A stretch of 64,000 bases of DNA, taken from contig SVGY01000011.1 of the NCBI GenBank assembly GCA_015056145.1, forward strand, positions 1 to 64,000, written 5' to 3'. The notes beneath the pieces are model-generated. The model did no database searches. It was not told the origin of the DNA and saw nothing but the letters and a program-made list of their open reading frames with translations. A program made the translations under genes and the position numbers. Shown here piece by piece: positions 22,381 through 58,754 of the stretch (within the stretch, counting starts at the first letter, position 1; every line of letters starts with the position of its first letter). Source of the DNA: Clostridiales bacterium. Its GTDB lineage: Bacteria; Bacillota; Clostridia; Christensenellales; Aristaeellaceae.

Positions 22381-22598
22381 ACGCAGGAGAATGCCTCTCT
22401 CCTGCGTCAGCTTGTGGAAAAACCTCATTTTTGTCAGTCAAAGCCGCAAATCTTGCACCTTCGTTGCTCGCTGTGCTTTCTTGAAAGCGCTGCGGCACAA
22501 GGAATGTGTGCTCTGCCCACACCCGGCAGGGGGATGATCCCCCTGCACCCTGCGCATTTTTTGACAGCCAGACGCAGGAGAATGCCTCTCTCCTGCGT
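22381..22598 (-). mobile_element. Terminator-nested repeat element, copy A
   Basis: A 164-bp core (22408-22571), inverted relative to the two other copies, flanked by two identical 27-bp copies of the local terminator hairpin (22381-22407 and 22572-22598; stem ACGCAGGAGA/TCTCCTGCGT). Only the copy far from the minus-strand gene ending at 22615 is followed by the T-tract on that strand. Core features: ends resembling CAGGCTGTCAAAAAA / CAGCTTGTCGAAAAA inverted repeats, and an internal palindrome GCAGGGGGAT-C-ATCCCCCTGC. No coding capacity. Confidence 0.8.
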
Positions 22599-36157: not shown

Positions 36158-37696
36158 TTATTGCGGGATAAGGAAATGATCGGAGTAGTATTCCGAGTGT
36201 TTTTCCACTTCTTCGTAGAAGGCCTCTTTGCCCATGGTCTCCATCAGCGTATCCTGATCAGAGAAGAGGTTTGTTCCCAGTGCAAGACGGTCTCCTTCGA
36301 TATCGCATCCCATAGCTGCCAGGATGGTGGGCATAATGTCAAAACTGCAGAAAGTGCGGTTCTGCGTTCTTGAAGGTTCCAGATCGGTGTTGATGAAACA
36401 GTTGTACACCCTTCTGTCAAAATTCTCTTCGACAGTGCGAACTATGTATTCGTTATCCATCGTCAGATGGTCGCCGCAGATGACGATGACCGTATCCTCG
36501 TAGAAATCCTGCTGTTTGATCCATTCCACAAAGGAGTAAACCTGTGCGCTGGAGCAGGAATAGACGTTGTTGTACTGTTCCTCGTAGTCATCACCGCAAT
36601 GCTCGCACACATAGCCGCTGGGGAAGTGGGTATCCACCGTCAGCAGGGTAAAGGCGAAGGGTTCGTCCCCCTGGGCCATTTCCGTCAGCTTGATTTTTGC
36701 GTAGTCGAAGAGGTAGAAGTCCTCCATGCCCCACCAGACAAAGTAGTCCTCCGGAATAATTCCGTCGGCCTTTGCGGCTTCGATATCATAGATGGCATCG
36801 GTTCCGTGCTGGGAGAAATAGCGGTTGCGTTTGGCAAAATCGCCATCCGAGCCAATCATCAGTGCCTGGTTATATCCTTCGGCATGGAGAATATCCATCA
36901 GCGTAGTTGCGCCCGGGAGGAAGTATTCCGAACCGTAAAGATCCGTGCCGGAAGTAAGGGGCAGCTTCAGGGGGATGCCCGCCGTCTGGCTTACCATGGC
37001 GGCGATGGTCCAGGTGGCGTAGGGAGGGGCATAGAAACCGCCCACTCCATCGTTGTGGGAAAAGTTCACGTTTTCATCCGCCATTTGCCAAAGCTCGGGG
37101 ATAAGGTTCTCCTGCATGGCGCCCCCCTGCTCCTTGGAGAAGAAGGTGGTTTCTGTGGACTCCAGAAGGATATAGATCACATTGCGCTTTTTTTCCGGGA
37201 AAACGATATTGGCCTTCTCGGGCGCCACATAGTGCTCTTCGTACAACTGCGATTTTTTCAGGGAGTGGCGGACATAGGGAAAGAAATTAACGATATACGC
37301 CGCAGAGAACACCATAATTAAGCAAAGGAGCACGGAAACGGCTTTTTTTGCCTTCCAGTTGAAGGGATAAAGCGACTTTCGCTCGGCGGCTCCCTCTGAT
37401 TGGACGGGAATTTTGCGTACGCAGCGCAGAACAAAGAAAATGAGCGCTCCGCCGGCCAGCAGCGTGGGCAGAAGGGCTTCCAGCAGGTAGGAATACACCA
37501 GCGTGGATTCCACGCCGCTCATACCGCCAAAAAGAGTGTTGATAATAGCGTAAAAGCCAACATCGCCATATACACGCCGATACCATATTGCAGAAAACAA
37601 CGCAAGTGCGCCAAGCAGAATCAGCACAGAGCAAAGAATGCCCCAGAAGACATTCCAGTTTTTCCTCTTCTGTGTGTCAACAGTTGCACATTTCAT
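36158..37696 (-). CDS. LTA synthase family phosphoglycerol transferase
   Basis: 512-aa membrane enzyme of the sulfatase/alkaline-phosphatase superfamily. About four N-terminal membrane helices (18-38, 68-90 and two near 118-138) precede the extracellular catalytic domain. Catalytic Thr is in PYATWTIAAMVSQTAGIPL. Metal ligands are visible in LLESTE, IGSDGDF and VICGDHLTMD. Such enzymes transfer glycerol phosphate to lipid or glycan acceptors. Two Cys (CEHC) lie between the metal motifs, possibly a disulfide or metal clip, which is unusual. Shorter than LtaS (about 640). GAGGTAG lies 6 bases before the ATG. Confidence 0.88.
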   Translation of the reverse strand: MKCATVDTQKRKNWNVFWGILCSVLILLGALALFSAIWYRRVYGDVGFYAIINTLFGGMSGVESTLVYSYLLEALLPTLLAGGALIFFVLRCVRKIPVQSEGAAERKSLYPFNWKAKKAVSVLLCLIMVFSAAYIVNFFPYVRHSLKKSQLYEEHYVAPEKANIVFPEKKRNVIYILLESTETTFFSKEQGGAMQENLIPELWQMADENVNFSHNDGVGGFYAPPYATWTIAAMVSQTAGIPLKLPLTSGTDLYGSEYFLPGATTLMDILHAEGYNQALMIGSDGDFAKRNRYFSQHGTDAIYDIEAAKADGIIPEDYFVWWGMEDFYLFDYAKIKLTEMAQGDEPFAFTLLTVDTHFPSGYVCEHCGDDYEEQYNNVYSCSSAQVYSFVEWIKQQDFYEDTVIVICGDHLTMDNEYIVRTVEENFDRRVYNCFINTDLEPSRTQNRTFCSFDIMPTILAAMGCDIEGDRLALGTNLFSDQDTLMETMGKEAFYEEVEKHSEYYSDHFLIPQ

Positions 37697-38051
37697 TCTT
37701 AACTACCTCGATATATGGGTCAAAAATAAGGTGAAGTGGGTGCAAACAGGGCGACAGGGGATACGGTGCAGCACACCCTGGGAGACAAAGCAACCCGAAG
37801 GAAACAGCAGTCAGCGTCTCGCTCCTGAAGGGGCCCAACAAAGAATTATAGCACTTTGCGCAAAAAAAGACAACAATAAAACATTTTAATGAATAACCAG
37901 CGGAAACCGACTTTTTTCAGATGATTTCGCAAGTAGAAGATAGTCCGGGCAGACAGGAAAAGACAGGGAAGTATCGGGTTTGCAGTCTAAGTATGACTGT
38001 GATAAAATGCCAATAATCAGCTTGCCATATAAAAAAGAGGAGCTGAAAAAC
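37697..38051. other. Gene-free stretch with LTA-synthase leader and promoters
   Basis: Holds the minus-strand promoter of the LTA-synthase gene (TTGTCT 37868-37873, 17 bases, TATAAT 37845-37850), which implies a leader of about 140 nt. It also holds a weak plus-strand promoter (TTGCAG then TAAAAT near 38009) before the broken gene at 38052. No coding region or known riboswitch is recognised. Confidence 0.5.
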
Positions 38052-38190
38052 ATGAAGAAAGCAGATGCCGCCGTGGATGTATACAGCAGAGGTTTTCACT
38101 GTCCGCAGCGGTGCTGGCTGCCTTTCCCGGGGAACAGGACCTAACGAAGAACTGGGTATTAGGACTTGGCAGCTGTTTTGGTATTAGTTG
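38052..38190 (+). pseudogene. Remnant of a C_GCAxxG_C_C family gene
   Basis: Frame one reads MKKADAAVDVYSRGFHCPQ. Shifting by one base continues AVLAAFPGEQDLTKNWV and LGLGSCFG. Together this is the N-terminus of the C_GCAxxG_C_C redox-protein family (xGFxCxQAVLAAF...LxSCFGGG). The remaining Cys/GCA motifs are lost, and sequence after 38190 is unrelated. A good site (AGAGGAG, 9 bases) still precedes the ATG, so the decay is recent. The homology is recalled from the motif; an alignment would confirm it. Confidence 0.65.
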
Positions 38191-38307
38191 TTGCCGTTTC
38201 TGGTTTATGCGTGATTTCTTCACCGATCAGAATGGCTGGGATGATAGAAATATTGCATACAGGGAAAGCCGCATTTGTTCAAAGTTTGACTAAAAAATGG
38301 TGGTGAG

Positions 38308-38718
38308 ATGAAAATGACATTTGGTGAACGTTTATATGGGTTGCGTAAAACGAAAAACATTTCACAAGAAGAACTGGCAGAAATATTGGATGTGTCTCGA
38401 CAGTCAATTTCAAAATGGGAAAACGACAGGGCATACCCGGAAATGACAAGGCTTCTCTTTATGAGTGAGTATTTTGAGGTTTCTTTGGATTATCTAATGC
38501 GGGGAACAGAAGAAGAAAACAAAGAAGAGAGTATGGCGAAGTATAAAGCCAAAAACATGCTGTTGATCTGGAACAATTTTGTATCGAACTTGTCAAGCAA
38601 ACAGCGGAAATTGATGATGATATTGTATGTGCTGTTGATATGTGTTTGTATTGCTGTTGTTATTGGATTTATTTATGGGGTCGGATATGCGATAGGGAAA
38701 TTCATCGGATATTTATAA
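38308..38718 (+). CDS. XRE-family regulator with membrane tail
   Basis: 136 aa. Residues 1-65 are a Cro/C1 helix-turn-helix (LRKTKNISQEELAEILDVSR, QSISKWENDRAYPEM) followed by a short charged linker. One hydrophobic helix lies at the C-terminus (about 102-135), ending VGYAIGKFIGYL. The layout is that of membrane-anchored one-component regulators common in Clostridia. GTGAG precedes the ATG at 38308; an ATG at 38314 is also possible. The next small gene shares the GYxIGxF ending. Confidence 0.85.
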   Translation: MKMTFGERLYGLRKTKNISQEELAEILDVSRQSISKWENDRAYPEMTRLLFMSEYFEVSLDYLMRGTEEENKEESMAKYKAKNMLLIWNNFVSNLSSKQRKLMMILYVLLICVCIAVVIGFIYGVGYAIGKFIGYL

Positions 38719-38836
38719 AAACGGCCTGAATTTGTGATTGTAACTGCAAGTTTACACAAGTGCAACCCTGGATTTATGGTTCTTTTTGATGAATAAAGTT
38801 ACTTTCTATGTATGAAATTCTTTAGGAGGTAACTAC

Positions 38837-39001
38837 ATGTGCAAAGTGAGTAACATCATAAGGGACATCAAGACATGGGTAAATGCAGGCGAGGAAAGAG
38901 TGGTTTTTGTCAGAAAGGCATTTGCCGTCAGTTTGGCATTGCTTATTCTTTATAAATTTGGATATGTCATAGGAACGTTCCTGGCACAGATTGGGATATA
39001 A
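38837..39001 (+). CDS. 54-aa small membrane protein
   Basis: Short ORF with AGGAGG 7 bases before its ATG. The N-terminal half is charged (MCKVSNIIRDIKTWVNAG), and the C-terminal half is one membrane helix (AVSLALLILYKFGYVIGTFL). Its end, FGYVIGTFL, resembles VGYAIGKFI at the end of the upstream XRE protein, suggesting a paired function or a duplicated tail. No family is recognised. Confidence 0.65.
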   Translation: MCKVSNIIRDIKTWVNAGEERVVFVRKAFAVSLALLILYKFGYVIGTFLAQIGI

Positions 39002-39151
39002 ACTAACTGAATAACAGGATGAAACCTTTTGCCAAACCAAATATGGCGAGCGAAATCAGAGGAAAAACTGCCCGGTTCTCGTTTCGGTTGACGACTGCGG
39101 GTCGCTATGCCCTGCGGGCATGTGTCCACCGGACCCCGCTTCCCTCCGTCG

Positions 39152-39174
39152 CCCGCGGCCTTTTGGTCCCGAAC
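39152..39174. repeat. 23-bp copy of tRNA-Pro sequence (probable att site)
   Basis: 23 consecutive bases starting CCCGCGGCCTTTTGG are identical, and in the same orientation, to 43447-43469 inside tRNA-Pro(CGG). The shared block runs from the anticodon loop to the T-arm. Flanks differ. It probably marks one end of the integrated island; the integrase remnant lies between. The surrounding GC-rich segment 39030-39190 has hairpins such as ATGCCC-TGC-GGGCAT and no convincing gene. Confidence 0.6.
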
Positions 39175-39272
39175 GCTGCAATCAATCGTTCAAAACATAG
39201 TATTTGTTCGGGTTTCTGATGTGATTTGGGGGTGTATAGACCTTGAAAAAGGCGGTATCACACCCATAAAAA

Positions 39273-39305
39273 TGTATTGCAATTCGCAATACATTCGCAT
39301 ATAAT
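39273..39305 (+). promoter_or_regulatory. Toxin-antitoxin promoter and operator
   Basis: A perfect inverted repeat TGTATTGC-AATTC-GCAATACA (39273-39293) overlaps the -35 box TTGCAA (39277-39282). A 17-base spacer leads to TATAAT (39300-39305). This is typical of autoregulated RelB/DinJ operons. Confidence 0.75.
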
Positions 39306-39329
39306 ATAACCAAGAAAGGAGTGAACCCC

Positions 39330-50871: not shown

Positions 50872-51099
50872 AGGCCTCCCGCAGCCATTTGCTGTGGGAG
50901 ACCTCAGGCTATAAAAAATGCGCCGGGTGCAGGGGGATCATCCCCCTGCCGGGTGTGGGCAGAGCCCACATTCCTTGTGCCGCAGCACTTTCAAGAAAGC
51001 ACAGCGAGTACCGAAGGTGCAAGATGTGCGGCTTTGACTGACAAGAATGAGGTTTTTCGACAAGCTGAGGCCTCCCGCAGCCATTTGCTGTGGGAGGCC
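50872..51099 (+). mobile_element. Terminator-nested repeat element, copy B
   Basis: A 164-bp core (50904-51067) between two 32-bp copies of the shared terminator hairpin of trkH and the thioredoxin reductase gene (50872-50903 and 51068-51099; stem GGCCTCCC/GGGAGGCC). The left copy has one change, GGGAGACC, which stays paired as U-G only in minus-strand RNA. The core holds the palindromes GCAGGGGGAT-C-ATCCCCCTGC and TGTGGGC-AGA-GCCCACA, and ends in GACAAGCTG. No coding capacity. Confidence 0.85.
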
Positions 51100-58102: not shown

Positions 58103-58322
58103 ACCGCTGCAGATATGCTTTCTGCAACGGGCAGGCTGTCAACATAGGTGCGGGTGCAGGGGGATCATCCCCCTGCCGGGTGTGGGCAGAGCCCACAAGC
58201 CTTGTGCCGCAGCACTTTTAGAAAGCACAGCGAGCACCAGAGGTGCAAGATGTGCGATTTTGAACGTAAATAATGAGGTTTTTTGACAAAATGACCGTTG
58301 CAGATATGCTTTTCTGCAACGG
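58103..58322 (+). mobile_element. Terminator-nested repeat element, copy C
   Basis: A 163-bp core (58131-58293) between two near-identical copies of the local terminator hairpin (58103-58130, 28 bp; 58294-58322, 29 bp; stem CCGTTGCAG/CTGCAACGG). The hairpin far from the minus-strand gene is the one followed by TTTTTG on that strand. The core is the most diverged copy at its right end, but it keeps both internal palindromes. The far hairpin carries CCGC for CCGT, pairing as U-G only in minus-strand RNA. Confidence 0.82.
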
Positions 58323-58346
58323 TTTTTAATGAAAACAAAAGGGAAA

Positions 58347-58754
58347 TCAGCCTTCGATTTCGCTGGTTTCTTCGGCGGGCTGGGCTTCCTCTGCGGAAAC
58401 GGCCTCGACGGCTTCTTCGGCAGCTTCCTCAGCGGGGGCTTCGGCATCGGAACCGTCGGTGAGGGCGGGCTTGGCTTTCTTGGCCTTGCGGGCAGCCTTG
58501 GAGGCGGCAAGGGCTTCTTCCAGGGTGTTCTGCTCGCTCAAAAGGGCGGTGAGTTCCTCGGGGAGGGCAACGCCGTTTTGCCACAGCTCCTTGAGCTTGG
58601 AGGGCAGCTGCGCAGCGATTTCCTTGCGGCGGGACTCCATATTGATCTCGCTCAGCTTCTGCTTTGCGTTGTCAGCCAGATTGGCGGCGCCCTGTCCGAC
58701 GCTTTCTACACATTTGAACCAGGCGGATTTCACTTTTTCGGTAAAGTTGGCCAT
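58347..58754 (-). CDS. Small helical protein, paralogue of the one at 46.7 kb
   Basis: 135 aa. An aromatic helix (KVKSAWFKCVESVGQGAANL), a charged middle (ADNAKQKLSEINMESRRKEI) and LPEELTALLSEQNTLEEAL match the 46.7-kb protein in order. A Lys/Ala-rich hinge (KAARKAKKAKP) and a long acidic Ala/Glu tail are specific to this copy. No family recognised. AAGGAAGG lies before the ATG. Its terminator hosts repeat copy C. Confidence 0.75.
   Translation of the reverse strand: MANFTEKVKSAWFKCVESVGQGAANLADNAKQKLSEINMESRRKEIAAQLPSKLKELWQNGVALPEELTALLSEQNTLEEALAASKAARKAKKAKPALTDGSDAEAPAEEAAEEAVEAVSAEEAQPAEETSEIEG

What the first reader, a model, noticed from the sequence alone, without database searches (positions are those of the whole stretch)
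50872..51099. A 164-bp non-coding element present three times, each inside a Rho-independent terminator
Three cores (22408-22571 inverted, 50904-51067, 58131-58293) are 164, 164 and 163 bp and clearly homologous over their whole length. They share the palindrome GCAGGGGGAT-C-ATCCCCCTGC, a second stem TGTGGGC-AGA-GCCCACA (one mismatch in copy A), and imperfect terminal inverted repeats (CAGGCTGTCAAAAAA at one end, CAGCTTGTCGAAAAA at the other). None encodes a protein. All three sit in the terminator just after a gene. This looks like a MITE-type or structured-RNA element with strict preference for terminators. I do not recognise it as a known family.
Basis: partly seen in the sequence, partly recalled or inferred. 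Interest (0 to 1): 0.92.

Follow-up and report, generated by a model that had tools for sequence, protein, structure and literature searches.

The report
Mini-transposon that duplicates terminator hairpins
A 164-base mobile element without genes has spread to dozens of places in this bacterium's genome by landing on DNA hairpins, nearly always those that end transcription, and leaving a full copy of the hairpin on each side, which may be why so many copies are tolerated.

Summary
The three copies are real. They belong to a family of at least 72 copies at 58 sites in the host genome, median pairwise identity 97.5%. The key feature was missed: each element lies between two copies of the target's hairpin, not inside a terminator. 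In 65 of 72 copies a direct repeat (the hairpin) abuts both junctions, centred on the hairpin.

The ends match those of an IS1182-family branch (4 of 4 transposases tested over the NF033551 cut-off): a matrix built only from IS ends ranks MITE ends 1-4 and 7 in the window. These ISs behave alike: 41 of 80 loci show a hairpin direct repeat of 19-64 bp; 128 of 134 readable junctions abut a stem of 7+ bp, against 83 of 800 random points.

So: a MITE probably mobilised in trans by a hairpin-targeting IS1182-type transposase that duplicates the whole hairpin. Published IS1272 deletes its hairpin; duplication was drawn there only as a possible pathway. Terminator preference largely reflects where strong hairpins lie. 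No such transposase was found in this genome. Internal stems covary; an RNA role is open.

The parts
22381..22407 (.). Copy A, left copy of the duplicated 27-bp terminator hairpin
   Evidence: read; identical to 22572-22598; (L103)
22408..22571 (-). Copy A of the MITE, 164 bp, inverted
22572..22598 (.). Copy A, right copy of the hairpin, followed by a T run
   Evidence: (L103)
50872..50903 (.). Copy B, left copy of the 32-bp hairpin
   Evidence: one difference from 51068-51099; (L104)
50905..51067 (+). Copy B of the MITE, 163 bp (base 50904 may belong to either side)
51068..51099 (.). Copy B, right copy of the hairpin
   Evidence: called terminator-like (L104)
58103..58130 (.). Copy C, left copy of the hairpin, preceded by an A run
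   Evidence: called terminator-like on the minus strand (L105)
58132..58293 (+). Copy C of the MITE, 162 bp, the most diverged of the 72 copies (87% to consensus)
58294..58323 (.). Copy C, right copy of the hairpin (one substitution and one indel from the left copy)
   Evidence: (L105)

Best explanation
The element is a MITE of an IS1182-family branch. Inferred mechanism: a DDE transposase supplied in trans binds the ends (CTGGCTGTCAAAAAA / CAGCTTGTCGAAAAA), recognises a hairpin or cruciform as target whatever its sequence, and joins the two 3' ends of the element at the two 5' feet of the hairpin. Gap repair then leaves a whole hairpin on each side, so the hairpin sets the length of the target duplication (18-41 bp at MITEs, 19-64 bp at ISs). 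Rho-independent terminators are hit because they are most of the strong hairpins available. Insertion is probably mild because the outer face of each hairpin copy keeps its A or T tract, so a terminator remains for each direction. Shown: the duplication, its symmetry about the hairpin, the shared ends, the same behaviour of autonomous ISs. Inferred: transposase in trans, cut positions, cruciform or single strand, tolerance.
For: 65 of 72 MITE copies have a direct repeat abutting both junctions. Repeat centre within 1 nt of hairpin centre in 41 of 46 MITE and 36 of 40 IS cases, 6.7% expected for windows displaced by up to 20 nt; length follows hairpin span, r = 0.79 and 0.77. IS loci: 41 of 80 with a hairpin direct repeat; 128 of 134 junctions abut a stem of 7+ bp, 83 of 800 random positions. 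IS-end matrix ranks MITE ends 1-4 and 7 in the window. Transposases pass the IS1182 cut-off, 4 of 4 tested. Relatives' MITEs also have repeats of 11-30 nt at both sides, 10 of 11 examined.
Against: No IS1182 or DDE_Tnp_1 transposase found in the host genome, which is 94% complete. 17 of 56 IS copies with both junctions were scored as having different hairpins on the two sides (L222 is a miscall, L197, L225, L228 weak). Seven of 72 MITE copies lack the clean repeat, and 8 of 46 analysed MITE repeats have a hairpin under 8 pairs. No exact empty site found. No transposition was observed.
Confidence: 0.87

Rival explanations
1. A structured RNA or 3'-UTR regulator maintained by selection at terminators; mobility is secondary or past.
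For: Four internal stems stay paired in 97.2% of cells over 13 elements; 5 pairs change on both sides; covariation score above 500 of 500 shuffles and all slid versions.
Against: It does not explain hairpin duplications or IS-type ends. Only 22 of 500 shuffles argue on the count of double changes, sequences are related, and palindromes may be kept for DNA reasons. No Rfam family. It can coexist with the MITE reading.
Confidence: 0.05
2. Hairpin replacement as in IS1272/TnSha1, with the two flanking hairpins being coincidental or later duplications.
For: Same transposase family and hairpin targets (PMC5678879, PMC4923244).
Against: Those elements are reported to delete the stem-loop without target duplication; here the same hairpin stands at both junctions in 65 of 72 MITE copies and 39 of 56 IS copies.
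Confidence: 0.03
3. Another element that uses terminators or makes long duplications: IS1202-type insertion or RNA-templated (group II intron-like) insertion.
For: Long duplications and terminator sites (recalled features of those groups).
Against: Duplication length follows the hairpin instead of being fixed; ends match IS1182 elements; no Rfam intron match in the window.
Confidence: 0.03

Closest known systems
IS1272 / TnSha1 (IS1182 family, Staphylococcus; PMC5678879, PMC4923244)
   Same: IS1182 family; target is a hairpin without sequence consensus; several targets are terminators (passages read).
   Different: They delete or replace the stem-loop and make no target duplication. Wan et al. 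draw whole-stem-loop duplication only as pathway b of a possible model. Here the whole hairpin is duplicated, and the most abundant form is a 164-bp MITE.
Other IS1182 members said to target palindromes (Siguier et al. 2015, seen only as cited in the two papers above)
   Same: Palindromic targets.
   Different: No details could be read; whether they duplicate the palindrome is not known to me from any call.
Autonomous ISs found here: L125=L161 (Eubacteriales bacterium OttesenSCG-928-N13), L180 (Gemmiger sp. An120), L166-L169 (Chakrabartyella piscis), L226
   Same: Ends CAGnCTGTCrAAAAA and duplicated hairpin.
   Different: About 1.5-1.6 kb with a transposase of about 440-450 aa; found in other genomes than the host.
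Bacterial MITEs and small repeats such as RUP, BOX, SPRITE, Chunjie, QMITE2 (review PMC10969869, passages)
   Same: Short, non-coding, multi-copy intergenic repeats; SPRITE is described as terminator-like.
   Different: The eight passages shown for my terms describe no MITE whose target duplication is a whole hairpin, and IS1182 is not named in that review's main text.

Membership tests
MITE of an IS1182-family branch | short, without a transposase gene, many near-identical copies | tested here: met
   164-bp consensus, 72 copies, median pairwise identity 97.5%, 13 identical
MITE of an IS1182-family branch | terminal repeats shared with an autonomous IS | tested here: met
   matrix from 41 ISs ranks MITE ends 1-4 and 7 in the window; copy B's left end is not among the 14 listed
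MITE of an IS1182-family branch | same kind of target duplication as that IS | tested here: met
   hairpin repeats centred on the hairpin in both
MITE of an IS1182-family branch | autonomous partner in the same genome (usual, not required) | tested here: not met
   PF05598, PF01609 and NF033551 give none in G000
MITE of an IS1182-family branch | mobilised by the IS transposase | not testable with these tools
   needs a transposition assay
IS1182 family (the autonomous relatives) | transposase matches the family model above cut-off | tested here: met
   NF033551, 375-410 bits against a cut-off of 270, 4 of 4 tested
IS1272-type stem-loop replacement | hairpin deleted or replaced, no target duplication | tested here: not met
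   same hairpin on both sides in 65 of 72 MITE copies and 39 of 56 IS copies
IS1202 group | duplication of nearly constant length (about 24-29 bp, recalled) | tested here: not met
   18-41 bp at MITEs and 19-64 bp at ISs, following the hairpin
IS1202 group | IS1202-type transposase and ends | not tested
   no such transposase was searched for
Described structured RNA family | match to an Rfam model | tested here: not met
   gathering threshold only; 3 tRNAs and nothing at the elements

The most novel reading that the evidence does not exclude
A branch of IS1182 transposases measures its target by structure: it joins its ends at the feet of an extruded cruciform or folded strand, so the hairpin itself dictates the duplication (18-64 bp). 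Its MITEs carry a conserved, covarying internal module that rides into 3'-UTRs at terminators and acts on the transcripts there, so that dozens of unrelated genes in one genome share an inserted, still-terminated 3'-UTR module.
Probability: 0.25. Interest if true: 0.88.

Novelty: new variant of a known kind. Interest (0 to 1): 0.7.

Why it matters
In most insertion sequences the length of the target duplication is a constant of the transposase (established knowledge). Here length and position follow a DNA hairpin, and autonomous elements in named, cultured bacteria show it too, so the question whether such transposases read cruciform or single-strand structure becomes directly testable. It also suggests how a mobile element can occupy terminators in large numbers: by duplicating the whole hairpin it leaves a terminator on each side. 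Inserts of 164 bp in dozens of 3'-UTRs could alter transcript ends.

Tried and rejected
Rfam gathering search: no family at the elements. Phage collection: no match; plasmid collection: one 44-bp match (88.6%) in a Candidatus Magnetococcus plasmid, not followed (the tool warns that records near the window's genome may be left out). Search for TIR pairs 350-5000 bp apart in the loci held at that point: only tandem MITEs in L071 and L107. Lone left ends: L116 reads as a truncated copy, L114 as a chance match in a gene. A first gene analysis by longest ORFs mis-called genes (which also ended with an error after printing its results); repeated with a coding score. In one search five sites come out as divergent; window copy C is one of them and is a miscall, since the reverse ORF 58347-58754 has matches in 16 of 17 genomes. 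For one search I removed that spurious forward ORF and added three reverse ORFs to the coding mask by hand. Exact empty sites: not found. Another DUF772 transposon of the genus with other ends (L119, G013): no hairpin repeat detected.

Rows dropped or mis-set: L174 left out of the IS set and 9 tandem-internal copies out of the MITE set; 9 of 64 paired copies had no ungapped repeat (several have indels and count as repeats). L174's right end is mis-set in the matrix. L052 was left out of the element alignment because no flanking repeat was found; several relatives' elements were trimmed to their ends by hand. In one search the 17 'different' cases include L222, which one search shows to have the same hairpin on both sides, and weak cases L197, L225, L228.

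Papers: 10 searches. PMC5678879: passages and part 1 of the Discussion; PMC4923244 and PMC10969869: passages; all others listings only. In those listings and passages I saw no report of whole-hairpin duplication by IS1182 elements or their MITEs; the library is open-access only, and ISfinder or TnPedia pages could not be searched.

Full report
OBSERVATION. The genome in which the window lies (G000, 2.77 Mb, 31 contigs, 94% complete) holds 72 right ends of the element at up to 3 mismatches (reversed-pattern control 0) and 57 left ends (control 0). All 72 right ends were fetched with flanks: 72 copies at 58 sites, 50 sites with one copy and 8 with two to four copies in tandem. The consensus is 164 bp, median pairwise identity is 97.5%, and 13 copies are letter-for-letter identical, which suggests recent activity.

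The element does not sit inside a terminator; it lies between two copies of one hairpin. In copy A the 27-bp hairpin 22381-22407 recurs exactly at 22572-22598; copies B and C show the same with one or two changes. Genome-wide, 65 of 72 copies have a direct repeat abutting both junctions. The other seven are L060, L061, L064, L075 (no matching repeat; one flank lost or rearranged), the two copies of L072 (different hairpins) and L099 (repeat 6 nt off). In the ungapped set the repeat is 18-41 bp long. Of 55 such copies 9 tandem-internal ones were left out; in the remaining 46 the repeat's centre lies within 1 nt of the hairpin's centre in 41, against 6.7% for windows of the same length displaced by up to 20 nt; 38 of 46 hairpins have 8 pairs or more; length follows hairpin span with r = 0.79. 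None of 300 random 27-nt windows of the window carried a centred hairpin of 8 pairs or more.

THE AUTONOMOUS RELATIVES. A search for DUF772 transposases in the genus gave an interrupted IS in G002 (L121) flanked by a duplicated 40-bp hairpin, with ends CAGACTGTCAAAGAAG. Its transposase fragment matched 25 of 150 genomes of the family; among the loci kept, L125, L126 and L130 show the same arrangement. L125 has an intact 449-aa frame and ends CAGCCTGTCAAAAAAGG. A scan of named genomes with an alignment of six transposases kept the best 80 of 539 loci, mostly Clostridia, among them Gemmiger sp. An120 and An87, Chakrabartyella piscis, Claveliimonas bilis and Acetobacterium wieringae. L161 there (Eubacteriales bacterium OttesenSCG-928-N13) matches L125's protein at 100%; L125's genome is in the window's family, so the host is probably one of the Clostridia; its species was not identified. 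In 41 of the 80 loci a hairpin-type direct repeat of 19-64 bp flanks the IS, including a 64-bp palindrome duplicated whole (L226) and all four copies in the complete C. piscis chromosome. Many of the other 39 are cut by contig ends. Of 134 IS junctions that could be read, 128 abut a stem of at least 7 bp, against 83 of 800 random positions in the same loci. In 40 IS cases the repeat is centred on the hairpin within 1 nt in 36. All four transposases tested pass the NCBIfam cut-off for IS1182.

LINK BETWEEN MITE AND IS. A position matrix was built from the ends of those 41 ISs, with no MITE in it, and run over both strands of the window. Ranks 1, 2, 3, 4 and 7 are MITE ends (rank 4 ties with rank 5 in score); ranks 5 and 6 are not, and copy B's left end is not among the 14 listed. 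Relatives in the genus carry diverged MITEs with other variants of the same ends; of 11 examined, 10 have an exact repeat of 11-30 nt on both sides. By DNA match 15 of 60 genomes have it: 13 of 17 in the genus (own included), 2 of 19 in other genera of the family, 0 of 24 beyond; the matches listed for one of those two (G030) are short and cover the palindrome region, those of the other (G027) were not displayed.

WHY TERMINATORS. Hairpins of 10 or more pairs in the window: 16, of which 15 are intergenic and 12 of these have an A/T tail; 4 of the 15 are the elements' own hairpin copies. A hairpin-seeking element would therefore mostly land in terminators. 0 of 58 sites lie inside a called gene, and 53 of 58 have at least one called gene ending towards the site. 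Of the 72 copies, 62 have a T-rich stretch after the right copy or an A-rich stretch before the left one; one-sided cases are 11 and 16, so no strong orientation bias appears. Selection against other sites may add to this and was not tested.

MECHANISM. Wan et al. 2017 (PMC5678879, part 1 of the Discussion) reason that a DDE transposase joining its 3' ends at the two 5' feet of a stem-loop would duplicate the stem-loop, and at the 3' feet would lose it. They report the second outcome for IS1272, and Furi et al. 2016 (PMC4923244, passages) report partial deletion of the hairpin for TnSha1. The elements here fit the first outcome in large numbers. Each insertion leaves the outer A tract on the left hairpin and the outer T tract on the right one, so both directions should keep a terminator (inference). 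Tandem arrays could arise by renewed insertion or by recombination: copies differ from each other in 7 of 8 arrays, but every array runs in one orientation, so this stays open.

INTERNAL STRUCTURE. On 13 elements from several species four stems keep 97.2% of cells paired. Five pairs change on both sides (22 of 500 shuffles reach that); the covariation score exceeds all 500 shuffles and all slid versions. This supports constraint on the palindromes, for DNA or RNA reasons. The RNA fold of copy B with its hairpins has z = -6.65, in part because the two hairpin copies pair with each other; the element alone folded as DNA has z = -2.76.

AGAINST. The host has no detectable IS1182 transposase: PF05598, PF01609 and NF033551 give none. 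Of 56 IS copies with both junctions, 39 have the same hairpin and 17 were scored different (L222 is a miscall, L197, L225 and L228 are weak). In 8 of 12 such genomes only one match to the transposase was found. Recombination with loss of one copy, chimeric assembly, or capture of two hairpins could explain this; I could not tell. No exact empty site was found: at the orthologous gene end in 16 relatives (site B) and 15 (site C) the element is absent from the 330 nt printed after the stop; hairpins visible there have other sequences.

VERDICT. A new variant of a known kind: hairpin-targeting IS1182-type transposition with whole-hairpin duplication, carried here by a very successful MITE. That this outcome has not been described rests only on the ten open-access literature searches listed.

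Noticed in passing
L173, L175, L176, L182, L183, L191, L198, L199, L200, L206, L209, L214, L236: IS1182 copies flanked by two different hairpins, each abutting the IS end; 8 of 12 such genomes show only one match to the transposase.
   Followed up: partly
L121:446-3048 (G002:C51): Hairpin-flanked unit of about 2.6 kb with an interrupted IS1182 transposase and a separate 191-aa ORF with a signal-like N-terminus (L121:2275-2850, no Pfam hit): possibly a cargo gene.
   Followed up: no
L042:871-1500 (G013:C37): Tandem array with a period of about 121 bp whose units contain palindromes like the MITE's internal stems.
   Followed up: no
L063, L068, L070, L071, L072, L089, L107, L110: Eight MITE arrays of 2-4 copies, each in one orientation, although single insertions show no strong orientation bias.
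   Followed up: partly
L072 (G000:C8:178290-178643): Array with three different hairpins; the middle one has the sequence of the hairpin at another array, L070, on the same contig.
   Followed up: no
L135 (G064): CRISPR-like 29-bp repeats near a broken IS1182 transposase.
   Followed up: no
window 37628-39320: About 1.7 kb in which my coding-score caller places no gene.
   Followed up: no
L040 and L053 (G014): Palindromes like the MITE core stand directly beside a terminator hairpin without an evident second hairpin copy.
   Followed up: no
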